A stretch of 64,000 nucleotides of DNA from Prochlorococcus sp. AG-418-I20 (GTDB lineage Bacteria; Cyanobacteriota; Cyanobacteriia; PCC-6307; Cyanobiaceae): the NCBI GenBank assembly GCA_003214175.1, contig QCLZ01000002.1, positions 158,605-222,604 of the forward strand. The letters are read 5' to 3'. Within the stretch, counting starts at the first letter, position 1, and every line of letters starts with the position of its first letter. The notes under the pieces were generated by a model. The model saw only the letters and a list, made by a program, of their open reading frames with translations, was not told where the DNA came from and ran no database searches. The position numbers and the translations under genes are program-made. Shown here one piece after another: positions 34,705 to 63,711 of this stretch.

Positions 34705-35493
34705 TTACAAGTAGATTTTCCTTGCTTCCTCAAGGTCATCAATAGTATCTATAGAGAATGTTTTAGATTGTGATCTTGGGCTATAAATAATTATATTGTT
34801 TTCAAGAGCTCTCAATAATTCGATATCCTCTATTGACTCTAATAATGATTCGTTAAGTTTACTATATTTTAACAAACCTTTTTTTGTAAAACCTATTACT
34901 GACAAGTGTTTTTTGAAACTTATTTTTCCATAAGATAATAAATTATTTTTATGATTTAAGGGGATAGCAGATCTGCTCATATATCTTACCCTTGAATTTT
35001 TATCGACAGCTAATTTTACCACACTTATGTTTTGCGACTCTTCTTTATTAATTACCTGATGAGGTAAAATTATACCTTTTTGATTTAAGGGGTCATTAAA
35101 TTTAGAAGTTAACTCATTTACGACTAATTCTAGAATTTCAGAATTTATGAACGGCTCATCGCCTTGTACATCTATAATATAATCTGCGTCAATTTTATTA
35201 TTGGCAAATGCTTCTGCTATTCTTTCAGTACCATTCTTTGGATTACTACTGGTTTCTAAAAATGGGATTGAGGATTTCCTGAGGAAATCTATAATCTCAT
35301 ATGAGTCAGTGCATACATAAATCTCAGAATCAATTTTTAGAGCTTTTAAACTGCTTAAAGTATTCTTGTAAACAAGCCCTATCAGCGGTATATCTCCTAT
35401 AGTTAAAAGTGCTTTTCTAGGCAATCTTCTTGAGTTTAATCTGCAAGGTATTAAAACTACCAACTTTTTAGGAACTAGCAAGCCATCCTCCAT
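34705..35493 (-). CDS. KdsB-like cytidylyltransferase
   Basis: The 262-residue protein resembles 3-deoxy-manno-octulosonate cytidylyltransferase: LIPCRLNSRRLPRKAL, TSSNPKNGTERIAEA, IIDVQGDEPFI, VRYMSRSAIP, SVIGFTKKGLL, IEDIELLRALENN and the C-terminal SIDTIDDLEEAR. It should activate a sugar acid with CTP. The start is uncertain: ATG at 35493 overlaps the SDR gene by 26 bases; in-frame TTG codons at 35481 and 35463 could also serve. Its neighbours suggest a non-standard sugar rather than Kdo for lipid A. Confidence 0.75.
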   Translation of the reverse strand: MEDGLLVPKKLVVLIPCRLNSRRLPRKALLTIGDIPLIGLVYKNTLSSLKALKIDSEIYVCTDSYEIIDFLRKSSIPFLETSSNPKNGTERIAEAFANNKIDADYIIDVQGDEPFINSEILELVVNELTSKFNDPLNQKGIILPHQVINKEESQNISVVKLAVDKNSRVRYMSRSAIPLNHKNNLLSYGKISFKKHLSVIGFTKKGLLKYSKLNESLLESIEDIELLRALENNIIIYSPRSQSKTFSIDTIDDLEEARKIYL

Positions 35494-37385: not shown

Positions 37386-38165
37386 ATGAAACAAAAATTT
37401 CAAAATCAAATTAATTTATCTCTAAATCAGTTTGCTTATATTTCATCAAAATCTCCAATGATTATGCATCTAAATCCTGCTGGTTTACTTCGTTTAGGAA
37501 ATGATAATGAATCTAGATTTATGGCTTTTAATTCTCTTATAAATTCTGTGGCAGATAAAGGAGGAAATTTAGCTATTCCAGTTTTTAGCTATTCATTCCT
37601 AGGAGGCTTAAATTTATTTGATATGAATAAAACGCCCTCTAAATTAGAAAAATTAAGCGAATATCTTAGAAAAAAAAATATTTTTAATCGTACATGTGAT
37701 CCTAATTTTTCTTATCTTTTGTTTGGAAATAATTTTGATTTTAGGCATAAAAAAGTTCATGATTATAATACATTTGGTGAAGGAGGTTTGATTGATGATA
37801 TTTTCAAATCAAAAGGTTATTTGTGTGCATTAGGGGGAGTTTTAGAGCATTTAACAGAATTGCATTATATTGAAAACAGATTAAAACTAAGTTATCGGTC
37901 AAATAAAATTTTCAGTGGGAGTATAATTGATTATAAAGGAATAAAACATAATCAAAATACAACTTACTATTGCCGAGAACTAGAATCAAACTACGTATCA
38001 TCTTTTGTGAAATTCAAAAAAGATATAAGAGAATCAGGATTGTTAAAAAAATATTTTATTTCAGAATATGCAATTCGCTTAGAGGTGGTAAAATTTAAAG
38101 ACTGTTATGATTTCTTAAAAGAAAAAATATCTATTGACCCCGCATATTGTTTGGGTAAAAAATAA
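37386..38165 (+). CDS. AAC(3)-family N-acyltransferase of surface glycans
   Basis: The 259-residue protein resembles aminoglycoside 3-N-acetyltransferase-like (Antibiotic_NAT) enzymes: MIMHLNPAGLLRLG at the start, NLAIPVFSYSF, a RTCDPNFSYLLFG segment, TFGEGGLIDDIF, the ALGG loop and TELHYIENRLKLSYR. Such genes in glycan clusters transfer acyl groups to amino sugars and need not confer resistance. Being first in an operon with an acyl carrier protein and acyl-tailoring enzymes, it could use an unusual acyl group. Confidence 0.75.
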   Translation: MKQKFQNQINLSLNQFAYISSKSPMIMHLNPAGLLRLGNDNESRFMAFNSLINSVADKGGNLAIPVFSYSFLGGLNLFDMNKTPSKLEKLSEYLRKKNIFNRTCDPNFSYLLFGNNFDFRHKKVHDYNTFGEGGLIDDIFKSKGYLCALGGVLEHLTELHYIENRLKLSYRSNKIFSGSIIDYKGIKHNQNTTYYCRELESNYVSSFVKFKKDIRESGLLKKYFISEYAIRLEVVKFKDCYDFLKEKISIDPAYCLGKK

Positions 38166-38180
38166 TTTAACAAGGTAATT

Positions 38181-39371
38181 ATGAGCAGATATTCTAAGTT
38201 TAAAATTGGAGATAATGCTACTATTATCCATCAAATTACAAAAGAAGATATTGAGAAATTTGTTTCTTTGAGTGGCGATAATAATAAATTACATGTGGAT
38301 AATGAATTTGCAAGTAAAACATCATACAAAAAACCTGTAGTCCATGGAATGATAGGTGCCTCATTCATTTCAACTTTAATAGGAACAAAAATTCCTGGAG
38401 ATGGAGCATTATGGTATTCACAAAATATCGATTTTTTACTTCCAGTTCGAATAGGTGACATTTTAACTATTAAGGCAGAAATAATTAAAATGATTCCTAG
38501 ATTAAACTCTATTGAGTTAAAGACAGAGATTATTAATCAAAAAAAACAAAAAGTAACCAAAGGGGTGGCAAAAGTAAAAATTATTGAAGATGATATTCAA
38601 TATAAAATTAAGGAGAAAAAAAAATCAAATAAAAAAGTTATTCTTATATTAGGATCAACTGGAGGAATCGGATCAGAAACAGCAAGGATATTTGCAAAAA
38701 AAGGTTACGAATTAATTCTTCATTATAATAAAAATCATGAAAAAGCAATTCAACTAAAAAATCAACTTTCAGCAAATAATAGTCAAAAAATAATTACTGT
38801 TAAAGCAAATATTCTAGATCAAAAAGATATTTCATATATGTTTGATGAAATAAAGAGAAATTTTGATCATATAACAGGATTAGTTAATGCTACAATTTTA
38901 AATTTTTCAAATATAAAATTTTCTGCAATAGATTGGAATGATATATCCCAGCAAATTGAAATCAATATAAAGTCTTCATTTTACATAATGAAAAATGTTA
39001 TTCCTTTAATGAAAAAGGATAATTATGGCAAAATTGTTTTTTTAACTACGCAGGCTACGGAGCAATTTGTCCCTGAATGGTTACATTATAGTACCGCTAA
39101 ATCAGCCTTAAATGGATTTGCAAAAACATTAGCTATTGAACTTGCTCCTTTTGGGATAAGAATAAATCTAGTTTCTCCTGGTATGACAGATACTAATTTA
39201 GTAACTGATATACCAGAGAAAATTAAATTAGTAACTGCAGCAAAAACACCTCTTAAGCGAATTGCAAAACCTATTGATGTTGCTGAAGCAATAGCTTATC
39301 TTATCTCCAGTAAATCAGACTTTTTGACTGGAGAAACATTGAGAGTTAATGGAGGACAAAATATGTTATGA
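38181..39371 (+). CDS. Fused MaoC-like hydratase and FabG-like reductase
   Basis: This 396-residue two-domain protein has an N-terminal hotdog domain (1 to about 135) with the R-hydratase residues in SGDNNKLHVD and KPVVHGMIG, and a C-terminal SDR (from about 150) with GSTGGIG, a NAT element and YSTAKSALNGFA. The usual catalytic serine of FabG is a threonine here (13 residues before the Tyr). The pair suggests reversible conversion of 3-ketoacyl, 3-hydroxyacyl and enoyl thioesters on the carrier protein encoded downstream. Overlap with the next gene is four bases. Confidence 0.85.
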   Translation: MSRYSKFKIGDNATIIHQITKEDIEKFVSLSGDNNKLHVDNEFASKTSYKKPVVHGMIGASFISTLIGTKIPGDGALWYSQNIDFLLPVRIGDILTIKAEIIKMIPRLNSIELKTEIINQKKQKVTKGVAKVKIIEDDIQYKIKEKKKSNKKVILILGSTGGIGSETARIFAKKGYELILHYNKNHEKAIQLKNQLSANNSQKIITVKANILDQKDISYMFDEIKRNFDHITGLVNATILNFSNIKFSAIDWNDISQQIEINIKSSFYIMKNVIPLMKKDNYGKIVFLTTQATEQFVPEWLHYSTAKSALNGFAKTLAIELAPFGIRINLVSPGMTDTNLVTDIPEKIKLVTAAKTPLKRIAKPIDVAEAIAYLISSKSDFLTGETLRVNGGQNML

Positions 39372-41086
39372 GAGATATAAAGTACAGTGAAATAATTAAG
39401 TTAAATAAAATTCTTGGAGTAAATTTTAAAGAGAAGAATAGTAAAAAATATAAAATATCAATATTATCTAATATAATGGTCCATCAGAGTAAAGAAATAG
39501 GTGAATACTCTTTAAGAAAGAATGATATTTATGCCGAAATAGATATTGGAAATTATGATAACTTGGTGCAAGATAGTGAAAATATTGATAAAAGTGACGC
39601 CATTATAATTTTTTGGGAATTATGCAATATTTTTGATGGTATTGAATATAAGATTGATTTAATTAGCGAAAAAAAATATGGTGAATTAATTAAAAAAGTA
39701 AAAAAAGAAATAGAATTGATCTTTAATAATATTCAATTAGTTCCTTTAGTATTAATTAATAGATTCTCATCATTAATTTTTACCCAAGATGAATTAAATA
39801 ATTTTCGATTAAAAAAATTAGAACTCACTTTTAATAAATTTTTAGAAAAATATTCTTCTAAATATAAAAATATAAAGATTATCGATACAGATAAGATTTT
39901 ATCAAAATGCGGAATTGAAAACTCTGTTGACTATAGATTTTTTTATGCATCTAAAACGCTTTACAGCATAAATTTTTTTAAATTTTATTTTAATTCAATA
40001 GCCCCAATTTTTAAAGCGGCAAATGGAAAAATAAAAAAAGCGCTTATTTTGGATTGTGATAATACCTTGTGGAAAGGGATATTAGGAGAGGATGGTTTTG
40101 AAAATATAATTATTAATAAAGAAATTCAATACTATGCAAGAAAACTTTCTAGAAGAGGAATATTAATAGGATTATGTAGTAAAAATAATTATGAAGACGT
40201 TGAAAATGTTTTAAATAATCATAAAGAGATGGTTTTAAAAAATAAAGACATCGTTATAAAAAAAGTTAACTGGATAGATAAGGTAACTAATCTAAAATCT
40301 ATTTCTAATGAACTTAATATTGGTCTTGATAGTATTATTTTTATGGACGATTCGGATTTCGAGTTGAACCTTATTCGTAAAGGGCTTCCAATGGTTGAGG
40401 TAATAAAGGTTCCAAATAAAAATCATGAGCTGCCAATTCTTTTTAATTATTTAAACAGAATTTTCTATAATTTTATAGAAACTTCTGAAGACAAAAAAAA
40501 GACTTTGTTATATAAAGCACAAATTGAGAGAGATAACTATAAAAACGAGTCAACTAATATAAATGAATATTTGATTAATCTGAGATTAAAAATTAAAGTC
40601 TATTTTAATAATGAAAAATTGATTTCTAGAATGGCTCAATTGACACAAAAAACTAATCAATTTAATTTAACAACAAAAAGATATACAGAAAATGATTTAG
40701 AAATCTTTTTAAAAGATACACAACAAATTGTTATCGCTATAAATGTTTCTGATATGTTTGGAGACTATGGAATTGTTGGTTTAATAATTATTAAATATAA
40801 AGAATCAATCGCTGAAATAGATACCTTTTTACTAAGTTGCAGAGTTTTGGGAAGAAACATTGAATTTAGATTAATGGATATTATTTGCAATAAATTAAAG
40901 AATCTTGGGATTAAACGACTATATGGAAAATATCAAAAAACAAAAAAAAATATACAAGTAAGTGATTTATATGAAAGATTTGGCTTTGAAATCAAAAGTT
41001 CTTATAAGGATACATTAAATTATGAGTTAATTTTAAATAACTATTGCCATTCTAATTTTGATTATATTAAGGTAATAGAAAATTGA
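39368..41086 (+). CDS. FkbH-like HAD-IIIC family protein
   Basis: The 572-residue protein has an N-terminal SGNH-hydrolase-like region, a HAD domain with LDCDNTLW (residues 228 to 235), GILGEDG, LCSKNN, NWIDKVTNL and IIFMDDSDFELNLI, and a GNAT-like C-terminal domain with RMAQLTQKTNQFNLTT and VSDMFGDYGIVG. FkbH-type proteins load glyceryl units from 1,3-bisphosphoglycerate on acyl carrier proteins. It is followed at once by such a carrier, which fits. The exact acyl group is inference. Confidence 0.85.
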   Translation: MRDIKYSEIIKLNKILGVNFKEKNSKKYKISILSNIMVHQSKEIGEYSLRKNDIYAEIDIGNYDNLVQDSENIDKSDAIIIFWELCNIFDGIEYKIDLISEKKYGELIKKVKKEIELIFNNIQLVPLVLINRFSSLIFTQDELNNFRLKKLELTFNKFLEKYSSKYKNIKIIDTDKILSKCGIENSVDYRFFYASKTLYSINFFKFYFNSIAPIFKAANGKIKKALILDCDNTLWKGILGEDGFENIIINKEIQYYARKLSRRGILIGLCSKNNYEDVENVLNNHKEMVLKNKDIVIKKVNWIDKVTNLKSISNELNIGLDSIIFMDDSDFELNLIRKGLPMVEVIKVPNKNHELPILFNYLNRIFYNFIETSEDKKKTLLYKAQIERDNYKNESTNINEYLINLRLKIKVYFNNEKLISRMAQLTQKTNQFNLTTKRYTENDLEIFLKDTQQIVIAINVSDMFGDYGIVGLIIIKYKESIAEIDTFLLSCRVLGRNIEFRLMDIICNKLKNLGIKRLYGKYQKTKKNIQVSDLYERFGFEIKSSYKDTLNYELILNNYCHSNFDYIKVIEN

Positions 41087-41093
41087 AAGATTT

Positions 41094-41333
41094 ATGAATG
41101 AAATTGATCAAAGAATAAAACTAATAATGAGTACAATTTTTGAAATTGATATTAATACAATAAATGATAACTCTTCTTTTGATTTAATTGAAAATTGGGA
41201 TTCAATGAATCACATGAACTTAATTGTAGCTTTAGAAGAAGAGTTTAACATTCAATTTAGCGATGATGATATTGAAAACTTGCTAAATTTCAAACTTATT
41301 AAATTTATAATTAAAGAATTAATTAATAAATAA
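41094..41333 (+). CDS. Acyl carrier protein (stand-alone)
   Basis: This 79-residue acidic helical protein has the phosphopantetheine site WDSMNHMNLI with Ser37, and the following EEEFNIQFSDDDIENL helix. It is not the fatty-acid AcpP, which should lie elsewhere, but a second ACP of the glycan island. It starts seven bases after the FkbH-like gene and should carry the acyl unit that module handles. Confidence 0.88.
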   Translation: MNEIDQRIKLIMSTIFEIDINTINDNSSFDLIENWDSMNHMNLIVALEEEFNIQFSDDDIENLLNFKLIKFIIKELINK

Positions 41334-41492: not shown

Positions 41493-42215
41493 TTGGATTA
41501 TAGAAAAGTTAGTGATGAAAATATTTTTAATGCAAGAAATATATTAAATGAGAGCAATAGTAATAATTTGTTTGAATTTATAGATCAATATCCACTATAT
41601 GCATGTCCACAAACTATTTTAAGGTATTGCAAAATATATGAACTTATTAAAGAAGCATTAAAGATTCCTGGTGATTTTTGTGAGTTTGGTACTTGGAAAG
41701 GTTCAACAGCTTTATTTATGGGGAAGATTATTAATGAAATAGAACCTCATTCAACTAGAAAAGTTTTGGTTTTTGATACATTTAGTGGATTACCTGATGC
41801 TACTAATAAAGATGGTTCCTATGCTAAAAATCAATCAAAAAAATATAAAGGCAATAAGCAAAATATGGAAAAAATCATTGATCTTTTCAATTTAAACCAT
41901 AGAATAAACCTAATAGAGGGAAATGCTGAAAAAACAATTCCTGAATTTTTTAATAAACAGAATCCTGTAATTATAAGTCTCGCATATTTTGACTTTGATT
42001 TATACAATCCAACAATTTTAGCTTGGAAGTTCATTAAAGATAGACTTCTAAAGGGCTCTATATTAGCTTTTGATGAAGGTTACACAAGAGATGAATGGAT
42101 TGGGGAATGCCAAGCAGTTTATGAAATTTTGAATGACAAAACATTTAAATATCAAATCACAACAAGTCAAAATAATATTTCCAGGCAACCAGAAATAATA
42201 TTGAATATTTCTTAA
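41493..42215 (+). CDS. TylF/MycF-family O-methyltransferase
   Basis: The 240-residue protein, starting at TTG, has EFGTWKGSTALFMG (from residue 64, SAM-binding), FDTFSGLPD, the RINLIEGNAEKTIPEF segment and the metal site FDFDLYNPTILAW..LKGSILAFDE, as in macrocin O-methyltransferase (TylF/MycF) enzymes that methylate sugars. In this context it probably methylates a glycan residue. A 159-base AT-rich gap separates it from the ACP gene, and a 155-base gap in which nothing was recognised separates it from the convergent gene at 42371. Confidence 0.82.
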   Translation: MDYRKVSDENIFNARNILNESNSNNLFEFIDQYPLYACPQTILRYCKIYELIKEALKIPGDFCEFGTWKGSTALFMGKIINEIEPHSTRKVLVFDTFSGLPDATNKDGSYAKNQSKKYKGNKQNMEKIIDLFNLNHRINLIEGNAEKTIPEFFNKQNPVIISLAYFDFDLYNPTILAWKFIKDRLLKGSILAFDEGYTRDEWIGECQAVYEILNDKTFKYQITTSQNNISRQPEIILNIS

Positions 42216-42370: not shown

Positions 42371-43753
42371 TTAATTATTTCCTTGTTCTAGTAGTGAGAT
42401 TACATGAGATTTTATTCTATCAGTAGGTAATAAACCATTATCATCTAGCAATTTAATCGGAAATGGTTTTGTATTCTTGCCATACATATAGAGAATCCCA
42501 TGAGGTGTGTGATAAGCAGAACTTCCAGTATTTTCTCTTATTATTCTTTTCTTAAGACCTTTCACCTTAATTATCTCGTTTGTTAATTTATCTTTGAAAA
42601 TTAATTTATCTAAGTTTGATGCATCAAAAAAGAGTGTTAGTGAATTTTTATCTCTGCTTCTTAACCAGAATTTTGAATTACTTTCTATTTCTTTTAATCG
42701 ATAAACAATTTTATTTATGATATTTGAATCTGCTGTAATTGAATAATGTGGAATCATTTGAGGATTTTCCTTCACTATTAGTTCTTCTTTACATAATGAA
42801 CTAAGAAATTTTTTACAACTACTAATATCCCAAAAAAAATCTTCTGGTTCATAGTTTTGTACAGCTTCCTGACCCATACTGGAAAGAACCCAAAGTTCAT
42901 AATCATCATGCTCATCAACAAAATTTGTTAATTGATTTAAAAAATATGCGGTTGATCTCATAGAGAATTTAATTTCATTTTTATAAGTTTTTATCCATCC
43001 ATCAGTATTTATTTGAGCTTTATAATCATTTGGGAAAGATGCCTCCCAAAATCTATGCATAGAGGAAGCGACATGATTGGTAAAAAAAGTACAAAAATCT
43101 GGTTTCTCTCTTATTAGGCAACTCATAAAGGCATCGAAAAGAATATCTGCTTGCAAAGTCCTTCTTCTCACATTAGTCCAAGGCATAAAAATTTCAATAA
43201 AAAGTTGTCTTATGGTGCAGAAAAAAGCTCTAAATCGATACGAATTTTTAAGATAAGATATTATGGCATCCTTCAAAATAAACAAATTTGGTAGAGATGT
43301 GTCAACTACTCTAGCTGATCTTCTAGACATAATATTATTTAATCTTTGTAAACCATTCATTGATTTTGGTTTGCATTTGAAGTTTTCTGAAAAAGAGTCA
43401 GGAATTACAAAAGAATAATTACTATGGTCTTTTATCTTTGATGAGTGGAATGATCCAAAAATACCAACTTTAAAACCTTTTTGGCTTAGTGTAGTCCATA
43501 AACTTGGATATTTTTTTTCGGTTTCGAAACTAGATATATTTATATCCTTTATCTTGTGTTTAGCATCTGTAACTCCTCTATGAATAGTAGGCCATGTTAC
43601 CCAAGGCGATAAGTGACCTTCATCTCGAGTTACAGTAGGTTGATATATAAATGAAGATATATTTTTTTTAAAAAAAGTATTTTCTGAGAAAATTTTTTCA
43701 AATACATTGTTAGGCACTTCATTTAATTCAAAAAAGATTATCTTAGTCATCAT
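42371..43753 (-). CDS. Alkaline-phosphatase-fold protein with altered metal ligands
   Basis: This 460-residue protein has the general layout of type I phosphodiesterase / alkaline phosphatase superfamily proteins: IIFFELNEVP at the start, WVTWPTIHRGV (the usual nucleophile position), TNHVASSMHRFW and YHTPHGILYMYG near the end. Yet the usual metal-binding SDHG element reads SSMGQE, and Asp positions are Glu or Asn. It may be a glycan phospho-substituent enzyme or a non-catalytic member. ATG codons at 43753 and 43750 are possible starts; a TTG at 43759 is less likely. Confidence 0.65.
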   Translation of the reverse strand: MMTKIIFFELNEVPNNVFEKIFSENTFFKKNISSFIYQPTVTRDEGHLSPWVTWPTIHRGVTDAKHKIKDINISSFETEKKYPSLWTTLSQKGFKVGIFGSFHSSKIKDHSNYSFVIPDSFSENFKCKPKSMNGLQRLNNIMSRRSARVVDTSLPNLFILKDAIISYLKNSYRFRAFFCTIRQLFIEIFMPWTNVRRRTLQADILFDAFMSCLIREKPDFCTFFTNHVASSMHRFWEASFPNDYKAQINTDGWIKTYKNEIKFSMRSTAYFLNQLTNFVDEHDDYELWVLSSMGQEAVQNYEPEDFFWDISSCKKFLSSLCKEELIVKENPQMIPHYSITADSNIINKIVYRLKEIESNSKFWLRSRDKNSLTLFFDASNLDKLIFKDKLTNEIIKVKGLKKRIIRENTGSSAYHTPHGILYMYGKNTKPFPIKLLDDNGLLPTDRIKSHVISLLEQGNN

Positions 43754-43890
43754 TCTCAATTTCTATAAATAAATAGTACATTATAAATTTTAAAAAATCT
43801 AAGATTTCTTTTGTTGTCTTTTCTCTACACAATATTAGATTTAAACGTAACTCTGCCGTTTTCATAATTTCTATCTATTTACATAACCAT

Positions 43891-45485: not shown

Positions 45486-46391
45486 ATGGAAAAATTTTTT
45501 ATACATCCATATCCACATTTAGTAATAGATAATTTTTTGACTCAGGATTATTGTGAAAGGCTAATTAATGATGCTGATAAATGTCTAAAAAATAACACCG
45601 ATATAATTCATGGGGGGCGAAAATTTTTACCAAGAACAAGTGAAGAGTTTAAGCTTCTTTTAAATAGTAGTAAATCATGGAGTGAATTAGATCGAAAGAT
45701 GAATTCTAAGGAATTATATGAATTACTTATAAAAAAAGTAATGGATCATAATTCCCCTAATAAATATAAAAGATGGCTGACTAAAAAAAATATATATTTC
45801 GCAAATTTACCTTCAATTAAAAACTTTATGCCGGAAAGGATGAAATCTAAATGGATAAAAATGTTAAATTCTAAAGTTAAAACAATATCTTCATATAAGT
45901 TGTTTCAGCTTTTGTTGATTAATCAGTTGGATAATATTTATAGATTATTTGTTTCTATTTTTGATTATTTCCGGAATAGGAGAAGGATATCACTTTTATA
46001 CGATTACTCTTTAGCAAATAAAGGATATTCTAGAGAAGTTCATCGCGATTCAGATTCAAGATTAGTAGTTTTTCTTCTTTATTTAAACGAATTAGAAAGT
46101 AATAGCGGGGGTAACTTAGAAATATTTGAATCAAAAAGAAATCATGGCGCTTTTAGTCCTAATCCTGATATAAAATCTTTAAATAAAATTAAAGAGATAT
46201 CTCCATCTCCTGGAAAACTGGTTTTATTTTTAAATACATCCAATGCATATCATGCTGTTTCGTTAATGAATAAGTCAAAATCCGGGAGACATTTTCTTTA
46301 TGGTGGTTATACTTTAAGTACCTCATTATTTTCATTATCCCGTATTGGTTCTTCCAAAAAATTAAATACTGAATACCACCTTTATAGATGA
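45486..46391 (+). CDS. 2-oxoglutarate/Fe(II)-dependent oxygenase (prolyl-4-hydroxylase type)
   Basis: The 301-residue protein begins PHLVIDNFLTQDYCERL, as in many 2OG-Fe(II) oxygenases, and has the iron ligands HRD (His186, Asp188) in EVHRDSDSRLVVFLLYLNE, GGNLEIFES, the distal histidine in NAYHAVS and the 2OG-binding arginine in GRHFLYGGY. It probably hydroxylates a sugar, lipid or protein. It is followed seven bases later by a methyltransferase gene, and a second such oxygenase lies at 47645. Confidence 0.85.
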   Translation: MEKFFIHPYPHLVIDNFLTQDYCERLINDADKCLKNNTDIIHGGRKFLPRTSEEFKLLLNSSKSWSELDRKMNSKELYELLIKKVMDHNSPNKYKRWLTKKNIYFANLPSIKNFMPERMKSKWIKMLNSKVKTISSYKLFQLLLINQLDNIYRLFVSIFDYFRNRRRISLLYDYSLANKGYSREVHRDSDSRLVVFLLYLNELESNSGGNLEIFESKRNHGAFSPNPDIKSLNKIKEISPSPGKLVLFLNTSNAYHAVSLMNKSKSGRHFLYGGYTLSTSLFSLSRIGSSKKLNTEYHLYR

Positions 46392-47644: not shown

Positions 47645-48562
47645 ATGTCTTTAGATTTTGAGAAATTAAATCTATACATAAGTCAAAAAGAAGTTGAGTG
47701 GCAATATTTTCCTTACCCTCATGCAATTATTGATGATTTCTTGCCTGAAGATATTTTTAATAGTATTTCTTCTATTGAACTTTCTTCAAGAGATGATTTG
47801 CGAAGATCTAATACCTCTGGTCTTGAATTAAATAAAAAAGAATTTGGGATAAAGGGTAAATCGTCATTATTTAGATTACCTATTGAAATTATGGGACATG
47901 GAGATGGTAAAAATCTATTTAGCAAATTTATTGATCCTGCCAAGATTATTACCCTTGCTTCTTTTAGAGACTTTGGAAATTACTACCCCTATCACAGCAG
48001 TACTAAAAATGGATTACTTGGATCACATATTGATCATTCATGCCTAAAGGAAAATATACATTTTGCAAATAGTATTTTCTATGTACATAAAACTTGGGAA
48101 AAAGAGTGGGGTGGTGAAACAATCCTTTTTTCAGAGAATGGATTAAAACCTAGAGTTTATATAGAGCCAAAGCCTAATAGAATAATTCTTTTTATTCATT
48201 CAAATTCGAGTTTTCATGGCGTAAATAAAATTTTGTGTCCAGACAATATAAAAAGAAATACCTACTATATGGATTATTATTTGAAGTTGTCTGATATTAA
48301 ACTTTTAACAAAAAATGTATATAAAGAAAGCTCCTTTTCTCATAAATTAAGATATACCTTCCATGAAACTACATTCATACCTTTTTTCCCTTTAGGAATA
48401 AATTCTAGGATTAGTTTCAATTTTAAGAGAATCTTTCCATATCTCTTTAGTTACATACTTTATTTATTTTTTAAATTTATTCCCCTAAAAATAAATGTTT
48501 CAATCAAATTATATAAATTAATTAATTATCTCAAAAAGCCTTTTCGAAAAGTTGTTTTTTAG
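47645..48562 (+). CDS. 2-oxoglutarate/Fe(II)-dependent oxygenase, second copy
   Basis: The 305-residue protein has YPHAIIDDFLPEDIF near the start, iron ligands in GSHIDHS (His127, Asp129), WGGETILFSENG, the distal histidine in SSFHGVN and a basic residue in RNTYYMDYYL. It is distantly related to the oxygenase at 45486, but the two are clearly different sequences. It is directly upstream of galE (two bases between). Confidence 0.83.
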   Translation: MSLDFEKLNLYISQKEVEWQYFPYPHAIIDDFLPEDIFNSISSIELSSRDDLRRSNTSGLELNKKEFGIKGKSSLFRLPIEIMGHGDGKNLFSKFIDPAKIITLASFRDFGNYYPYHSSTKNGLLGSHIDHSCLKENIHFANSIFYVHKTWEKEWGGETILFSENGLKPRVYIEPKPNRIILFIHSNSSFHGVNKILCPDNIKRNTYYMDYYLKLSDIKLLTKNVYKESSFSHKLRYTFHETTFIPFFPLGINSRISFNFKRIFPYLFSYILYLFFKFIPLKINVSIKLYKLINYLKKPFRKVVF

Positions 48563-52746: not shown

Positions 52747-54033
52747 ATGAACATTGATGGTCAAGTACTGCATCGATTTGCAAAAAGTTTATGGGGGCTT
52801 AACAGAAGTATTACTGGCGATGGTGTAAGAAAAACTTTAAAAGAAATAAAAGCAGTAATTCCAAATTTAGAAATTCATGAAGTACCAAGTGGAACAAAAG
52901 TTTTTGACTGGACTGTTCCAAAAGAATGGCATGTTAAAGAAGCATATATAATTGATCCAGATGGGAAAAAGATCTGTGATTTTAAAGAGAATAATCTACA
53001 TCTTGTTGGTTATAGTCATTCGGTAAATAAATCTGTTCCACTTCAGGAACTCCAATATAATTTGCATTCTTTGCCTAATCAACCTAACGCTATCCCTTAC
53101 GTTACTTCTTATTACAGTAAGAATTGGGGATTCTGCATTTCTCATCAACAAAGAGAAAAATTAAAGCAAGGAAATTATAAAGTTTTTATTGATTCAGAGT
53201 TGTTTGATGGAAATTTAACTTATGGTGAATTAATCATTGAAGGTGAATCAAAAAAGGAAATTTTTATTTCTTCTTATATTTGTCATCCCTCAATGGCAAA
53301 TAATGAATTATCAGGCCCTGTTGTCAGTACTCATATTGCTAAAAACATTTTACTGAAAAAAAATATTTACTATACGTATAGATTTGTTTTTATTCCAGAG
53401 ACTATAGGTTCCATAACCTACTTAAGTAAGAATTTAGAAATATTAAAGAAAAATATATTTGCAGGTTTTAATTTGACTTGTATAGGTGATGAAAGAAATT
53501 ATTCTTATCTCCCTTCTCGAATGGGTAATTCAATAAGTGATCAGGTTATAAAACATGTTTTATCTTTTGTAGATCCGAACTATAAGTCATTTGATTGGAG
53601 CGAGCGAGGCAGTGATGAGAGACAATATTGTGCCCCAGGTATTGATCTCCCCGTAGCTTCAATAATGAGAACTAAATATGGCGAATACCCTGAATACCAT
53701 ACCTCTTTAGATAATCTTGATAATGTAGTCACACCGGATGGTTTATTTGGGGGATTTAAAGTGGTTGATAAATGTCTTAATCTTTTAGAAAATAATGGTT
53801 ATCCAATTACGAAAGTCTTATGTGAACCTCAGTTAGGTAAAAGGGGATTGTATCCAAATTTATCAGCAAAAAAGGACTATCAAAAAACAAATTTAATTAT
53901 GGATTTCTTAACTTGGTCTGATGGTAAGAAATCTATTCTAGAAATAAGTGATTATTTAAATCAACCAATGTGGAAAATATTAGAAATAGTAAAAATATTA
54001 GAGGAATCAGAACTTATAGAGATTAAAAAATAA
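52747..54033 (+). CDS. DUF4910 (M28-like) domain protein
   Basis: The 428-residue protein has the features of DUF4910/DUF2172 proteins: LWGLNRSITGDGVRKTL, VFDWTVPKEWHVKEAYI, ISSYICHPSMANNELSGP (a zinc-peptidase-like site), FIPETIGSITYLS, GSDERQYCAPGIDLP and YPEYHTSLDN; it ends in a winged-helix-like part. Such proteins are frequent in O-antigen and nonulosonic-acid clusters; the fold suggests an amidohydrolase or deacetylase, but no activity is proven. Confidence 0.82.
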   Translation: MNIDGQVLHRFAKSLWGLNRSITGDGVRKTLKEIKAVIPNLEIHEVPSGTKVFDWTVPKEWHVKEAYIIDPDGKKICDFKENNLHLVGYSHSVNKSVPLQELQYNLHSLPNQPNAIPYVTSYYSKNWGFCISHQQREKLKQGNYKVFIDSELFDGNLTYGELIIEGESKKEIFISSYICHPSMANNELSGPVVSTHIAKNILLKKNIYYTYRFVFIPETIGSITYLSKNLEILKKNIFAGFNLTCIGDERNYSYLPSRMGNSISDQVIKHVLSFVDPNYKSFDWSERGSDERQYCAPGIDLPVASIMRTKYGEYPEYHTSLDNLDNVVTPDGLFGGFKVVDKCLNLLENNGYPITKVLCEPQLGKRGLYPNLSAKKDYQKTNLIMDFLTWSDGKKSILEISDYLNQPMWKILEIVKILEESELIEIKK

Positions 54034-58633: not shown

Positions 58634-59887
58634 ATGTTAAGTAATAAAGAATTAAATACAATTTTTAAGTTTAATTTATTAAATTATCAATGTTTTTTTG
58701 ATCAAGAATCTAATGTAGAATTTTTCGTTAAAGAAAAATATTTTATTGTTTCATCAAATCAAATTTTTATTAAAGATTTATGGATTCTTTTACAAATTTT
58801 TCAAAAACATTCTGTTGAGGCTAATATTTGTTTTTTGTTTTATTCTGCGAATGATGAGTTATTAAAAAGTTTTATAGAAGAAGCAAAACCACATTTTAAA
58901 AAACTAAATCTCTTTTTAGTTCCTAAAGAAATTTTAAATAAATCTCTTTTAGAAAATTCAATTTTTATGTTAGAAGAGTTTATAAATCGATCGAAATTAA
59001 ATTCATTAGTATCTCATAACTTTATTTTAATTTTAAATAAGCATATAAAAAATAATCTTTTTTTTCTGACCAGACTAGTAAATTATAGAGAAATTAATAA
59101 TGAGCAATATAAAAAAGAAAAAATTAATTTAGGAATTATAGTGCATGCAAGAATGTCTTCCACAAGATTGCCTGGAAAAGCAATGTTAGAAATTAATGGC
59201 GAGCCAGTGATATTTAAAATTTTGAAAAGAATTAAAGAATATTTTGTTAATGCAAAGACTATATTATCAACTAGTACAAATAAAAATGATGATTATATGG
59301 CCTCATACATTAATCAAAAAGGATTTCAAGTTTATCGTGGAGAAGAAGAGGATCTTGTTAGCAGATTTGTAGATATTGCTTTAAATGAGGACCTTACTCA
59401 TATAGTCAGAATTACAGGTGATGACATGTTTAGGGATTTGATTTCAATAAATAAATTGTTAGCAAGATTTATAAATAATGATCTTGATTATATTTTCTCA
59501 GATGATTTAATTTTAGGATGTAATTCTGAAATTATGAATATAGAGAGTTTATTGTTTATAAATAAATTTGCTACCTTCCCAAATTCAACAAACGCATTAA
59601 GTTGGTTTTTAGACAGAGAGGAAATTTTTAATATTGAGGAATTTTTTCATGATGTTCCTAAAAGGTATCCTATCTCTCTGATGTTAGATGAAAAAAAAGA
59701 CTATCTCTCCTTTTTAAAACTCTGGGAAAATGATGAAACATTCTTTTCTTCCTGCTGGAAATATAATGAATTATTTATTAAGTTAGAAAAAGATTTAGGA
59801 ATTTTTTCTTTTCATCCAGAGGATGTTGGCCTTTTAAATCGTGATAAAATAAGATTCTCCTTTCGATTTGATAAAAAAGTTGAATAA
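58634..59887 (+). CDS. SpsF/NeuA-like cytidylyltransferase with N-terminal extension
   Basis: Residues 162 to about 400 of this 417-residue protein match SpsF-like CMP-sugar synthetases: LGIIVHARMSSTRLPGKAML, EPVIFKILKRIK, STSTNKNDD, VYRGEEEDLVSRF and VRITGDDMF. The first 160 residues form a separate unassigned alpha-beta domain. It should activate a nonulosonic acid with CTP. Its stop overlaps the next gene's possible start by 20 bases. Confidence 0.82.
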   Translation: MLSNKELNTIFKFNLLNYQCFFDQESNVEFFVKEKYFIVSSNQIFIKDLWILLQIFQKHSVEANICFLFYSANDELLKSFIEEAKPHFKKLNLFLVPKEILNKSLLENSIFMLEEFINRSKLNSLVSHNFILILNKHIKNNLFFLTRLVNYREINNEQYKKEKINLGIIVHARMSSTRLPGKAMLEINGEPVIFKILKRIKEYFVNAKTILSTSTNKNDDYMASYINQKGFQVYRGEEEDLVSRFVDIALNEDLTHIVRITGDDMFRDLISINKLLARFINNDLDYIFSDDLILGCNSEIMNIESLLFINKFATFPNSTNALSWFLDREEIFNIEEFFHDVPKRYPISLMLDEKKDYLSFLKLWENDETFFSSCWKYNELFIKLEKDLGIFSFHPEDVGLLNRDKIRFSFRFDKKVE

Positions 59888-60838: not shown

Positions 60839-61903
60839 ATGATTAGTACTGCTAAAACTTTAAATCAGATTTTAGACCAAAATACAAATCCATACATTAT
60901 TGCTGAAATAGGAGTAAATCATGAAGGATCTTATGAAAAAGCTATCGAACTTATTAAACTTGCAAAAAAAGGTGGAGCGAATGCCGCAAAGTTTCAAAGT
61001 TATAAAGCCTCTACATTAGCTTCAAAGAATTCACCAAGTTACTGGGACACCTCAAAAGAAAAAACTAAAAGTCAATATGAATTATTCAAAAAGTTTGATA
61101 ATTTTGGCGAAAAAGAATATATATCCTTATCAAATTTTTGTAAAAAAATTGGGATTGATTTTCTTTCAACTCCGTTTGATGATGAATCAATTGACTTTCT
61201 AGAACCTCTAGTGCCTTTTTATAAAATAGCTTCAGCAGATTTAACCAATATCCCTTTTTTAAAAAAAATTGCTTCAAAAAATAAACCAATAGTTTTATCA
61301 ACTGGCGCTGCAAATCTCTCCGAAATTGATCAAGCCGTCACAACCATTGAAGAGATTAGTGGAAACTCACCAGCACTAATGCACTGCATACTATGTTACC
61401 CGACTCATAATGAAGATGCTAATCTTGCAATGATTAAGCATCTTAAAAGATCATATCCCAATTCAATTATCGGATATTCTGACCATACAATACCTGATTC
61501 ATCAATGACAACTGTAGTTTCATCTTTTCTTCTTGGTGCTGAAATTATAGAAAAACATTTTACTTTTGACAAAGAATTAGAAGGGAATGATCACTATCAT
61601 GCAATGGATATAAAAGATCTTAAAAATTTAAAGAATATTTTAGATAAGATATTAATTCTCTTAGGAAATTCAAGAATTAAGCAACCTATAAAGAATGAAA
61701 GTTTGTCTAGGAAAAATGCTAGAAGAAGCATTGTCCTAAAAAATAAATTAAATTCTAATCAAATTATTAAAGAAGAAGACCTTACTTATAAAAGACCTGG
61801 AACAGGAATAAGCCCAATTTTTTGGGGTGATGTAATTGGTAAAAAAGTTAAATATGATTTAGAAGAAGACTATATATTAGATTGGAGAGATTTAAAGGAT
61901 TAA
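60839..61903 (+). CDS. NeuB-type nonulosonic acid synthase (full length)
   Basis: The 354-residue protein has the complete barrel and SAF domains: IIAEIGVNHEGSYEKAIELI, AAKFQSYKA, DFLSTPFDDES, KIASADLTNIP, LSTGAA, MHCILCYPT, IIGYSDHT, EIIEKHFTFD, then ARRSIVLKN and the RPGTGISPIFW..VIGKK end typical of the antifreeze-like domain. It condenses phosphoenolpyruvate with a hexosamine derivative to make a nonulosonic acid. Whether the product is sialic, legionaminic or pseudaminic-like cannot be told from sequence. Confidence 0.88.
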   Translation: MISTAKTLNQILDQNTNPYIIAEIGVNHEGSYEKAIELIKLAKKGGANAAKFQSYKASTLASKNSPSYWDTSKEKTKSQYELFKKFDNFGEKEYISLSNFCKKIGIDFLSTPFDDESIDFLEPLVPFYKIASADLTNIPFLKKIASKNKPIVLSTGAANLSEIDQAVTTIEEISGNSPALMHCILCYPTHNEDANLAMIKHLKRSYPNSIIGYSDHTIPDSSMTTVVSSFLLGAEIIEKHFTFDKELEGNDHYHAMDIKDLKNLKNILDKILILLGNSRIKQPIKNESLSRKNARRSIVLKNKLNSNQIIKEEDLTYKRPGTGISPIFWGDVIGKKVKYDLEEDYILDWRDLKD

Positions 61904-61923: not shown

Positions 61924-63711
61924 ATGAAAAAAAAAAATACTCTAAAAAATTTAGTTGTCTCTCCCTATAATATTAAGCTAAATAAGAATCTGATTATATT
62001 TTTAGCTGATTATTCTAAGCCATTTGATTTTGATAATTCAAAGTCTCATATCATTTCTAATTACCATTGGAATGATAAATTAAAAGCAGAAAACGATTAT
62101 AAATATTTAAGTAATTTAAAGAGTAAAATACTATCTTTTCTTGTTCCAGAATTAAACTATTTGCATAATACGAACCTTTCTAAAAAATCCTGGAATTTAA
62201 TAATTGGATATTGGTTAACTTCTTTTCTAATTGTTTCTTATGATAGATTCTCAATGCTTAAGATGGTCGATGAAAAATATAAAAATTTAGTTACTTACTT
62301 TTGCGAAGCTAATCAAAAAGACTATATTCCATTTGATACTTTTAGTTCAAGAATAGATTTTGAAGATGAAAAATGGAACTATTTATTTATAAATAATTTA
62401 ATAGAGTATTTCCCCAATATAAATGTTAAAAAATATAAGACTAATCAAAATCAATTTAAATATAAAGTCAACTTAAAAAAAAGTCTGATATCTTTTTTTA
62501 CTGGAAAAATAAAAATATTAATATTTAATTTTTTTAGTTTAATTTTAAGGAATATTAGATTAGGAAAGAAAATATTTATAATCACTGGTATAGGAATTTC
62601 GTTTATCAATCTTTTAAAAATTAGATTTAGATTAAAAGGAAAAATATTTTTTGAACCTCAATTTTCTTGTTTAAAACGTATTACTTATTCTGAATCTTAT
62701 AGGAAATGGAAATTGAAGAGTGAGAAATCAGATGGCGAATTTGAAAAAATTTTAAAAGAATTAATCCCAAAATGGATGCCTTTAATATTTCTAGAAGGAT
62801 TTAAAAAAATTGAAATTAAAAATAATGAGCTTGCTAATTTAAGAAATATAGATGTTATTTTTACATCTTATGATCATTTTCATGGGGATTATCTTAAAAT
62901 TTGGTCATCAAAATTTATTGATAAAGGATGTAAATTAGTTGTTGCATCCCATCTAGGAGGGGTCTTACCAAAATATCAGATGCATTTAGACTATGAAGCT
63001 GAAGTTTGTGATCATTATCTTACAACTGGTCAGCAAAATAAAAAATTTAGCAATTCAGTACAAGTAGGCCAATTTTGGAACTACCTTCAATTTAATAAAC
63101 ATAATCCAAAAGGAAAAATCCTTTTAATTCCAACTATTAACTCTAAGTTTACAAGAGATTTGGCTTCATTCCCTTTAGGAGAACAAATGCATCTGTATTT
63201 CAAAGATCAATTTAAATTTTATAATAATTTGAATCTTGAGACCAAAAAAAACCTAAGATTGCGTTTATATAAAACGAATCAAGGATGGAATCAGAAAGAG
63301 TATTGGATGGAAAATTGTAAAGGTATCTTATTCGCCAACAATGAACATAGTTATTCTAGACAAGTTTCTAAATCTAGCATAATTATTTGTACATATTTAG
63401 GCAGAGGTTTTATTGAACTTTTGTCAGCCAATATACCAGCAATAATTTTCTGGGATACAACATTGTGGGAAGTTAACGAGTTTGTTGAAAGTGATTTAAA
63501 TCATCTAAAAAAAGTAGGAATTTTCTACGATTGTCCATTAAATGCTGCTAATAAATTAAACTCAATATTTAACGAAATAGATAAATGGTGGTTTTCAGAT
63601 GAATTACAAAAACAAAGAATTCTATTTTGTGAAAAATATGGATATTTAAATTCAAAAATGTATAAAGAAATTGGAAGTATTGTAAATAATATTGCTTATA
63701 AGAAAAGATGA
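61924..63711 (+). CDS. LIC12162-family transferase
   Basis: The 595-residue protein fits the LIC12162 family (TIGR04331) of putative transferases: NYHWNDKLKAENDYKYL near residue 50, LNYLHNTNLSKKSWNLIIGYWL, DRFSML, a central HFHGDYLKIWSS..GCKLVVASHLGG with GQQNKKF, and a late RGFIELLSANIPAIIFWD. It is a large GT-B-like protein found in bacterial nonulosonic-acid and O-antigen clusters. The activity is unproven; its neighbours suggest transfer of a CMP-activated sugar. Confidence 0.82.
   Translation: MKKKNTLKNLVVSPYNIKLNKNLIIFLADYSKPFDFDNSKSHIISNYHWNDKLKAENDYKYLSNLKSKILSFLVPELNYLHNTNLSKKSWNLIIGYWLTSFLIVSYDRFSMLKMVDEKYKNLVTYFCEANQKDYIPFDTFSSRIDFEDEKWNYLFINNLIEYFPNINVKKYKTNQNQFKYKVNLKKSLISFFTGKIKILIFNFFSLILRNIRLGKKIFIITGIGISFINLLKIRFRLKGKIFFEPQFSCLKRITYSESYRKWKLKSEKSDGEFEKILKELIPKWMPLIFLEGFKKIEIKNNELANLRNIDVIFTSYDHFHGDYLKIWSSKFIDKGCKLVVASHLGGVLPKYQMHLDYEAEVCDHYLTTGQQNKKFSNSVQVGQFWNYLQFNKHNPKGKILLIPTINSKFTRDLASFPLGEQMHLYFKDQFKFYNNLNLETKKNLRLRLYKTNQGWNQKEYWMENCKGILFANNEHSYSRQVSKSSIIICTYLGRGFIELLSANIPAIIFWDTTLWEVNEFVESDLNHLKKVGIFYDCPLNAANKLNSIFNEIDKWWFSDELQKQRILFCEKYGYLNSKMYKEIGSIVNNIAYKKR

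What the first reader, a model, noticed from the sequence alone, without database searches (positions are those of the whole stretch)
37386..41333. Ketosynthase-free acyl module for sugar N-acylation
Four tightly linked genes encode an AAC(3)-like N-acyltransferase, a MaoC-FabG fusion, an FkbH-like glyceryl loader and a stand-alone acyl carrier protein. Together they could load a three-carbon unit on the ACP, reduce or dehydrate it, and transfer it to an amino sugar of the surface glycan. No ketosynthase or adenylation gene is present. This may be an undescribed way of making uncommon N-acyl groups.
Basis: inference. Interest (0 to 1): 0.75.

Follow-up and report, generated by a model that had tools for sequence, protein, structure and literature searches.

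The report
Glycerate-fed sugar N-acyl swap cassette
A small marine cyanobacterium carries a gene cassette, likely acquired from unrelated bacteria, that is predicted to build an unusual three-carbon acyl group without a ketosynthase and would hang it on an amino sugar of the cell surface; a related gene set is likely what puts dimethylglyceroyl groups on Campylobacter flagella.

Summary
All four genes are at the stated coordinates; no ketosynthase or adenylation gene lies in the window. MaoC-FabG, FkbH and ACP form a conserved set: in 57 loci of at least 14 phyla, FkbH lies within 500 bp of MaoC-FabG in 55, and ACP within 500 bp of FkbH in 49 of 52 with room. Around DUF4910 in Campylobacterota, 37 of 38 stretches hold an AAC(3)-like gene and 11 hold FkbH. 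C. jejuni needs its DUF2172 gene Cj1295 for 5-N-(di-O-methylglyceroyl)-pseudaminic acid (PMC3068675). Best reading: an N-acyl swap module, in which DUF4910 removes N-acetyl, FkbH makes glyceryl-ACP, MaoC-FabG likely turns it into lactyl-ACP and the AAC(3)-like protein transfers it. Every catalytic step is inferred. The host is Prochlorococcus by named relatives; the cassette looks foreign. New variant of a known kind; acceptor unresolved.

The parts
37386..38165 (+). AAC(3)-fold N-acyltransferase, predicted delivery enzyme
   Evidence: PF02522; AlphaFold model pLDDT 91.7, PDB matches AAC(3), YokD, BA2930, FrbF at TM about 0.57-0.67; NF033082 AAC_3 only 19.4 bits against a cut-off of 270; R102 kept in 28 of 28, E163 in 26 of 28, H160 in 25 of 28 aligned proteins
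38181..39371 (+). MaoC-FabG fusion (hydratase/dehydratase + ketoreductase)
   Evidence: Pfam; D33, N35, H38 and Y303, K307 invariant in 27 sequences, N262 and T290 at 90% or more
39368..41086 (+). FkbH, predicted 1,3-bisphosphoglycerate-to-glyceryl-ACP loader
   Evidence: TIGR01686 280.3 bits; D229, D231, T233, K305, D328 and S490-C491-R492 invariant in 28 sequences; model matches 3slr (HAD) and GNAT-type acetyltransferases in the PDB
41094..41333 (+). stand-alone acyl carrier protein, Ser37 in WDS
   Evidence: PP-binding; the WDS motif is in all 42 aligned sequences, the window's included
41493..42215 (+). TylF-type methyltransferase, possible O-methylation; membership in the cassette uncertain
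   Evidence: PF05711 1.8e-14; TylF relatives in only 2 of 57 loci
52747..54033 (+). DUF4910/DUF2172/HTH_47 protein, Cj1295 family by domains, predicted N-deacylase
   Evidence: 47-55% identity to copies in L012, L029, L061, L115, L118, L119, L125, L126, all beside AAC(3)-like genes, but 26% to L049
49691..50494 (+). NeuB-family synthase (no SAF domain found), candidate acceptor pathway
60839..61903 (+). NeuB-family synthase with SAF domain, candidate acceptor pathway
   Evidence: TIGR03569 323.9 bits, below its cut-off of 399.65
58634..59887 (+). protein with cytidylyltransferase domain, candidate acceptor pathway
   Evidence: PF02348 8.5e-16
34705..35493 (-). KdsB-like cytidylyltransferase, candidate acceptor pathway
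   Evidence: NF003952 199.7 bits against a cut-off of 193

Best explanation
The cassette, whose MaoC-FabG, FkbH and ACP genes recur side by side in most of 57 loci from at least 14 phyla, is predicted to make a glycerate-derived three-carbon acyl-ACP without a ketosynthase, and its AAC(3)-fold protein would likely move that group onto an amine of a surface sugar that the DUF4910 protein is predicted to free of its acetyl group. Steps, all inferred unless marked: (1) FkbH dephosphorylates 1,3-bisphosphoglycerate and loads glyceryl, via Cys491, onto Ser37 of the ACP (the residues are shown; the chemistry is borrowed from characterised FkbH proteins). (2) The MaoC domain removes the 3-hydroxyl to give an enol/pyruvyl thioester, and the FabG domain reduces C2, giving lactyl-ACP (the weakest step). 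(3) DUF4910 removes the N-acetyl of an amino sugar, as was proposed for Cj1295. (4) The AAC(3)-like protein transfers the acyl group to that nitrogen. (5) A methyltransferase may cap the hydroxyl. The acceptor is probably a CMP-ulosonic acid or its precursor, since the island holds two NeuB-type genes and two cytidylyltransferase-domain genes, but no gene there passes a Pse/Leg dehydratase cut-off and no DegT-type aminotransferase is in the window.
For: The trio is linked in 55 of 57 (FkbH) and 49 of 52 (ACP) loci. FkbH and ACP distances across loci correlate at r 0.86 (42 sequences), FkbH and MaoC-FabG at 0.59 (54), each above all of 2000 permutations. AAC(3)-like and DUF4910 genes occur in the same 4 of 57 loci (Fisher 2.5e-6), and together in 37 of 38 Campylobacterota stretches. 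In Oceanospirillum beijerinckii one run of genes reads AAC3, methyltransferase, MaoC-FabG, FkbH, ACP, DUF4910 (L012). In one unnamed Campylobacterota genome (L126) a run of overlapping genes holds DUF4910, FkbH, ACP and a MaoC-AAC(3) fusion protein, with no ketosynthase hit in 17.5 kb. A Cj1295 mutant loses 5-N-(di-O-methylglyceroyl)-Pse (PMC3068675). Of three C. jejuni strains, the one with a broken fkbH (cj1302) lacks this group and NCTC 11168, with it intact, has it (PMC7099621). Presumed catalytic residues are kept in MaoC-FabG, FkbH, ACP and the AAC(3)-like protein.
Against: No enzyme was assayed, and the acyl group and acceptor are unknown. The window's DUF4910 gene lies 11 kb from the cassette. 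The nearest sugar aminotransferase on a glycan contig lies on C10, beside CDP-glucose genes. The third C. jejuni strain, 12661, is not the one said to lack fkbH (it lacks cj1301) yet also lacks the group, and the Cj1295 state of both negative strains was not stated in what I read. L126 has MaoC but no FabG found in its run, and in the other ten FkbH-bearing DUF4910 stretches there is no MaoC-FabG fusion, so the lactyl step cannot be general. AAC(3)-fold enzymes in the PDB are solved with CoA or acetyl-CoA (titles), not with acyl-ACP. Presumed catalytic positions are not universal: H28 is kept in 23 of 28 and H160 in 25 of 28. That C. jejuni itself has the AAC(3)-like gene beside Cj1295 is recalled; I read it only in unnamed Campylobacterota.
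Confidence: 0.58

Rival explanations
1. The same N-acyl swap, but the group delivered is plain or O-methylated glyceroyl, as in C. jejuni. MaoC-FabG then has a side role, or acts on a different acyl group.
For: The C. jejuni product is di-O-methylglyceroyl (PMC3068675). In the 38 DUF4910 stretches of Campylobacterota, FkbH goes with an MT310-type methyltransferase in 10 of 11 and never with a MaoC-FabG fusion. A TylF methyltransferase lies next to the ACP.
Against: In the 57 loci MaoC-FabG and FkbH stay together in 55 and MaoC-FabG keeps its presumed active-site residues; one of these loci, L009, is Campylobacterota too. The MT310-type methyltransferase has only weak hits in the window, 25.9 bits at best.
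Confidence: 0.25
2. MaoC-FabG makes a 3-hydroxyacyl group (for example 3-hydroxybutyryl) from a fatty-acid or CoA intermediate, and FkbH serves another branch.
For: MaoC/FabG domain families normally act on C4 or longer 3-hydroxyacyl thioesters (recalled). 15 of 57 loci also have a KAS III.
Against: 30 of 40 loci with at least 5 kb on both sides have no KAS III hit, and the window's genome has only one KAS III and one PF00109 ketosynthase, both on other contigs. FkbH and MaoC-FabG would not need to stay adjacent.
Confidence: 0.1
3. The first gene is an ordinary AAC(3) acetyl-CoA-dependent acetyltransferase (drug resistance), unrelated to the rest.
For: Fold match to AAC(3).
Against: 19.4 bits against the AAC_3 equivalog cut-off of 270; it lies 15 bp from the trio in a glycan island; its relative in L012 (43% identity) sits in the same kind of run.
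Confidence: 0.03
4. The cassette makes a methoxymalonyl-like or tetronate-like unit for a small molecule.
For: FkbH + ACP is the shared core (PMC7489565, PMC4979870, passages).
Against: No FabH-like protein, acyl-CoA-type dehydrogenase or PKS domain among the 27 ORFs of 150 aa or more at 33.5-63.7 kb scanned with Pfam; sugar genes all around.
Confidence: 0.04

Closest known systems
C. jejuni flagellin locus around Cj1293-Cj1304 (di-O-methylglyceroyl-pseudaminic acid)
   Same: DUF4910/DUF2172 (Cj1295), ACP (Cj1299) and FkbH (Cj1302) by published labels (PMC6321876, PMC3749442, PMC7099621); unnamed Campylobacterota show the same set with an AAC(3)-like gene and a methyltransferase; three-carbon acid as N-acyl group
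   Different: those loci have KAS III and DegT/epimerase genes beside them and no MaoC-FabG fusion; the window has MaoC-FabG, no KAS III, a different methyltransferase family, and DUF4910 11 kb away. The AAC(3)-like gene of C. jejuni itself is recalled
Tetronate glycerate-utilisation operon (e.g. tetromadurin Mad7/Mad8/Mad16)
   Same: FkbH-like protein + stand-alone ACP, likely making glyceryl-ACP (PMC7489565, passages)
   Different: uses a FabH-like condensing enzyme and a polyketide; the window has neither
Methoxymalonyl-ACP genes (FK520 type)
   Same: FkbH + ACP
   Different: two dehydrogenases are proposed to oxidise the primary hydroxyl (PMC7489565, passages); the window has MaoC-FabG
FkbH loading modules that start polyketides (FR901464; bryostatin BryA, recalled)
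   Same: FkbH with DH-type partners; PMC7901079 (passage) models FkbH as giving D-lactate-ACP, citing Zhang 2011 (not read). OocJ has DH-MT-FkbH-ACP in one module (PMC4552970, passage)
   Different: those are type I PKS domains feeding a ketosynthase; here the proteins are discrete and would feed a sugar transferase. The OocJ module is judged not functional by its authors apart from its ACP

Membership tests
FkbH (TIGR01686) | profile score over cut-off | tested here: met
   280.3 vs 146.65 bits
FkbH (TIGR01686) | HAD DxDxT motif and C-terminal conserved Cys | tested here: met
   D229, D231, T233, C491 invariant in 28 sequences; roles recalled
FkbH (TIGR01686) | loads glyceryl from 1,3-bisphosphoglycerate | not testable with these tools
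   needs an assay
Aminoglycoside AAC(3) equivalog (NF033082) | equivalog score | tested here: not met
   19.4 vs 270 bits
Antibiotic_NAT (PF02522) | domain score and fold | tested here: met
   47 vs 25 bits; TM about 0.57-0.67 to AAC(3)/FrbF structures
C. jejuni DMGA-Pse locus | DUF4910/DUF2172 + AAC(3)-like + FkbH + ACP in one glycan locus | tested here: met
   DUF4910 in the same island, 11 kb away
C. jejuni DMGA-Pse locus | MT310-type methyltransferase and KAS III | tested here: not met
   no KAS III; methyltransferase hits of 25.9, 22.0 and 14.3 bits only
C. jejuni DMGA-Pse locus | PseB/PseC-type acceptor genes adjacent | tested here: not met
   no DegT-type aminotransferase in the window
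C. jejuni DMGA-Pse locus | product N-(di-O-methylglyceroyl)-Pse | not testable with these tools
   needs glycan mass spectrometry
Methoxymalonyl-ACP pathway | acyl-CoA-type dehydrogenase(s) beside FkbH | tested here: not met
   none among the 27 Pfam-scanned ORFs at 33.5-63.7 kb
Tetronate glycerate operon | FabH-like condensing enzyme | tested here: not met
R-specific MaoC hydratase | Asp/His active-site pair | tested here: met
   D33, N35, H38 invariant in 27; role of the residues recalled

The most novel reading that the evidence does not exclude
MaoC-FabG/FkbH/ACP is an undescribed, discrete ketosynthase-free factory that converts a glycolytic intermediate into lactyl-ACP (glyceryl to pyruvyl to lactyl). 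Bacteria of at least 14 phyla plug it into interchangeable transferases (AAC(3)-fold, GNAT, hexapeptide, WxcM) to decorate surface sugars. With DUF4910 it forms a deacylate-and-reacylate editing module, a cousin of the one Campylobacter uses for flagella, that this Prochlorococcus uses for its surface glycan.
Probability: 0.33. Interest if true: 0.8.

Novelty: new variant of a known kind. Interest (0 to 1): 0.62.

Why it matters
If true, it names likely partner genes for a published flagellar N-acyl group in Campylobacter whose making is not explained in the passages I saw. It would explain why AAC(3)-like, FkbH and ACP genes sit in flagellin-glycan loci, and it gives a testable rule: the DUF4910 + AAC(3) pair swaps N-acyl groups, and the neighbouring gene (FkbH, KAS III or AMP-ligase) tells which group. 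It also suggests how surface chemistry, a plausible phage and grazer target, enters marine cyanobacteria by gene transfer. Resistance-style annotations of such AAC(3)-like genes would be wrong.

Tried and rejected
Tried without result: the MaoC-FabG protein in viral contigs (2 pattern matches, no relative), in annotated phages and in plasmids, both at E 1e-40. Papers joining FkbH with O-antigen, or with acyl carrier protein, glyceric acid and polysaccharide, or HAD-IIIC family phosphatase with acyl carrier protein and glycosyltransferase: none in the held library. A tree of MaoC-FabG to see whether ketosynthase-bearing loci form one clade: they do not (4 changes; shuffles as low in 218 of 500), so I claim no single gain.

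Considered and rejected: aminoglycoside resistance (equivalog cut-off failed); methoxymalonyl or tetronate unit (partner enzymes absent); a primary fatty-acid origin (the only ketosynthases are single genes on other contigs). Legionaminic/pseudaminic acceptor: left open, because no LegB/LegC/PseB/PseC/PseI/NeuB match passes its cut-off in the proteins I scanned with NCBIfam (21 of the window's proteins and 6 of L143; eight window ORFs of 150 aa or more at 33.5-63.7 kb were scanned with Pfam only).

Limits of the counts: the 57 loci are those that matched peptide patterns of A1 (65 loci returned; L066-L073 dropped as distant or partial, 25-36% identity). 'With room' in 49 of 52 means over 2.1 kb after MaoC-FabG, or an ACP found. 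One of the 49 ACP neighbours (L034) overlaps FkbH by 472 bp and may be misplaced. Several loci are metagenome bins. The 38 Campylobacterota stretches come from 37 of the 56 DUF4910-positive genomes and were picked by me, not at random; in the 30 shorter loci (about 4.2 kb) given, 21 of 30 hold an AAC(3)-like gene. The one of 38 without AAC(3) (L161) lies on a 10.7 kb contig, and in L146 the AAC(3) hit is a 77-aa piece. The profiles for DUF4910, FkbH, ACP and the rest were built from the 57 loci and the window, that for AAC(3) from A2 (25 sequences), so counts in the 57 lean towards what built them. The bryostatin precedent is recalled only (searches listed no paper from which I could confirm it; of those listings I opened PMC4552970, PMC7489565, PMC4979870 and PMC7901079).


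Full report
Observation. The four ORFs are exactly at the given coordinates and on one strand, with gaps of 15, -4 and 7 bp. Domain scans give PF02522 (Antibiotic_NAT), MaoC + FabG, FkbH (280.3 bits, cut-off 146.65) and a PP-binding ACP. A divergent cluster (epimerase, SDR, KdsB-like, AroB-like) lies upstream and a TylF-type methyltransferase downstream. No relative of KAS III or AMP-ligase is among the window's ORFs. The genome has one KAS III, one PF00109 protein and two AMP-binding proteins, all on other contigs, and no second PF02522 protein.

Host. The genome is 1.5 Mb in 24 contigs and 95.6% complete. It has two long and two short PF00421 (PSII antenna family) genes. Among the 120 listed relatives of its argF protein, the 3 that carry an organism name are all Prochlorococcus (86-87% identity). 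The cassette looks foreign: 24.8% GC against 33.2% on average, and at least 29.3%, in windows of its size over the first 33.5 kb; the island as a whole (33.6-64 kb) has 27.1%. FkbH has no close match in 36 congeners, many of them incomplete; one, G007, has a weak hit of 1.9e-32. MaoC-FabG groups with a Helicobacteraceae, an Oceanospirillum and a Flavobacteriaceae sequence at 100/99 support, away from the three Phormidium/Pseudanabaena sequences. That this is horizontal transfer is inference from these facts.

The conserved core. Searching with an alignment of MaoC-FabG relatives (A1) gave 65 loci, of which I used 57 (L009-L065). They come from at least 14 phyla by the labels (56 of the 57 are in that tree); several are metagenome bins, so single odd placements such as Woesearchaeota need care. 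FkbH lies within 500 bp of MaoC-FabG in 55 of 57 (misses: L016, and L063 at a contig end), and an ACP within 500 bp of FkbH in 49 of 52 loci with room (misses: L016, L020, L045). In Thiothrix the gene order changes but the trio stays together. Distances correlate between FkbH and ACP (r 0.86, 42 sequences) and between FkbH and MaoC-FabG (r 0.59, 54 sequences), above all 2000 permutations each; shared ancestry adds to this. Presumed active-site residues are kept: MaoC D33/N35/H38, SDR Y303/K307, FkbH D229/D231/T233/K305/D328 and S490-C491-R492, ACP serine. That Cys491 carries the glyceryl group is recalled from work on other FkbH proteins.

Two flavours. KAS III occurs in 15 of 57 loci, and AMP-ligase in 11, all with KAS III; among 40 loci with at least 5 kb on both sides, 10 have KAS III. 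So a ketosynthase-free form is the majority in this sample, and the window belongs to it. The transferase candidates near the trio vary: GNAT (15), WxcM (8), AAC(3)-like (4), and hexapeptide proteins (17 loci) and other GNAT-like proteins. DegT aminotransferases are near in 36 of 57, so amino sugars are the likely acceptors.

The AAC(3)/DUF4910 pair. AAC(3)-like genes occur in L012, L029, L049, L061 and the window, and DUF4910/DUF2172 genes in exactly the same loci (Fisher 2.5e-6 for the 57 without the window). L029 and L061 also have KAS III, and L049's DUF4910 is only 26% identical to the window's. In Campylobacterota, DUF4910 occurs in 56 of 249 genomes. In 38 stretches of up to 19.5 kb that I took around it, from 37 of those 56 genomes, AAC(3)-like genes are in 37, FkbH in 11, the MT310 methyltransferase in 10 (all with FkbH), KAS III in 20 and AMP-ligase in 5; no MaoC-FabG fusion above 250 bits is in any. 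So the pair is not tied to FkbH: most of these stretches have another or no visible acyl source. In the stretches with both FkbH and methyltransferase the usual order is DegT aminotransferase, DUF4910, AAC(3), ACP, methyltransferase, FkbH, KAS III, ACP. Published labels of C. jejuni fit this order: Cj1293 and Cj1294 make pseudaminic acid (PMC3068675), Cj1295 is a DUF2172 protein (PMC6321876, passages), Cj1299 an acyl carrier protein (PMC3749442, passages), Cj1302 an FkbH-domain gene (PMC7099621, section 28). That Cj1296/Cj1297 is the AAC(3)-like gene and Cj1303 the KAS III is recalled; I held no genome named C. jejuni. The MaoC part scores 24.7 bits, under Pfam's cut-off of 27, matches the window's MaoC-FabG at 1e-11 and keeps the GD...LH motif, with Ser for Asn. 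In another (L125) the acyl source near AAC(3)/DUF4910 is an AMP-ligase.

Experimental anchor. PMC3068675 (passages and its whole Discussion read): loss of Cj1295 abolishes the di-O-methylglyceric acid derivative of pseudaminic acid, with the glyceroyl on the C5 nitrogen, and the authors propose that Cj1295 cleaves the acetamido group so that it can be replaced. PMC7099621 (section 28 and passages read): strain 12664, whose cj1302 (fkbH) is a pseudogene, shows no dimethylglyceric glycans; NCTC 11168 does; strain 12661, which lacks cj1301 and is not the one said to lack fkbH, shows none either. The authors do not draw a link to fkbH in what I read, n is 3, and other genes differ between the strains. 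In the passages I saw, nobody assigns the FkbH or AAC(3)-like gene a role in this pathway (paper searches).

Mechanism. FkbH + free ACP giving glyceryl-ACP is the accepted route in tetronates and methoxymalonyl units (PMC7489565, PMC4979870, passages). On glyceryl-ACP a MaoC dehydratase has only the 3-hydroxyl as a beta-hydroxyl, so its expected product is the enol of pyruvyl-ACP, and a FabG-type reductase would then give lactyl-ACP. This is chemical inference. PMC7901079 (passage) models FkbH modules as yielding D-lactate-ACP, citing the FR901464 work, which I did not read. The AAC(3)-like protein has the AAC(3)/FrbF fold and would transfer the group to nitrogen. DUF4910 would first remove acetyl. 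The acceptor is unresolved: two NeuB-type genes and two cytidylyltransferase-domain genes are in the island, but none passes a Pse/Leg/Neu equivalog cut-off. The contig ends at the window's end, and a second contig (C10) ends inside a glycan cluster with two DegT hits, one at the very end, and CDP-glucose genes.

Verdict. I rate it a new variant of a known kind: a MaoC-FabG-equipped, ketosynthase-free relative of the Campylobacter N-acyl swap, on a core spread over many phyla whose chemistry has not, in my ten searches of the held library, been described.

Noticed in passing
L126:6551-7735 (-): MaoC-AAC(3) fusion protein in a KS-free run with ACP, FkbH, DUF4910 and, by eye, a methyltransferase-like gene.
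   Followed up: partly
L024:6429-6725 and relatives in 13 of 57 loci: A ~98-aa protein without Pfam match, found only in loci with KAS III; it carries a DSL motif by eye and may be a divergent second ACP.
   Followed up: no
L038:13111-14004 and 10 other loci: A ~297-aa protein without Pfam match, in most of these loci directly after the ACP where other loci have a transferase; possible new acyltransferase family.
   Followed up: no
window 42371-43759 (-): 462-aa protein without Pfam or NCBIfam match; by eye resembles alkaline-phosphatase-superfamily phosphodiesterases.
   Followed up: no
window 61924-63711 (+): LIC12162-family transferase (TIGR04331, 312 bits) directly after a NeuB gene; relatives near the trio in L009 and L044.
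   Followed up: partly
window 45486-46391 and 47645-48562 (+): Two 2OG-Fe(II) oxygenase-like proteins in the same glycan island.
   Followed up: no
L125 (G189): AMP-ligase, ACP-like, AAC(3)-like and DUF4910 genes within about 6 kb, suggesting the swap pair may also take other acids.
   Followed up: partly
L143 (G000:C10 end): Contig ends inside a glycan cluster with CDP-glucose genes and a LegC/PseC-like aminotransferase below cut-off; may be another part of the same island.
   Followed up: partly
PMC7099621: The strain with a broken fkbH lacks dimethylglyceric glycans, but so does a strain not said to lack fkbH; a natural experiment worth a proper test.
   Followed up: partly
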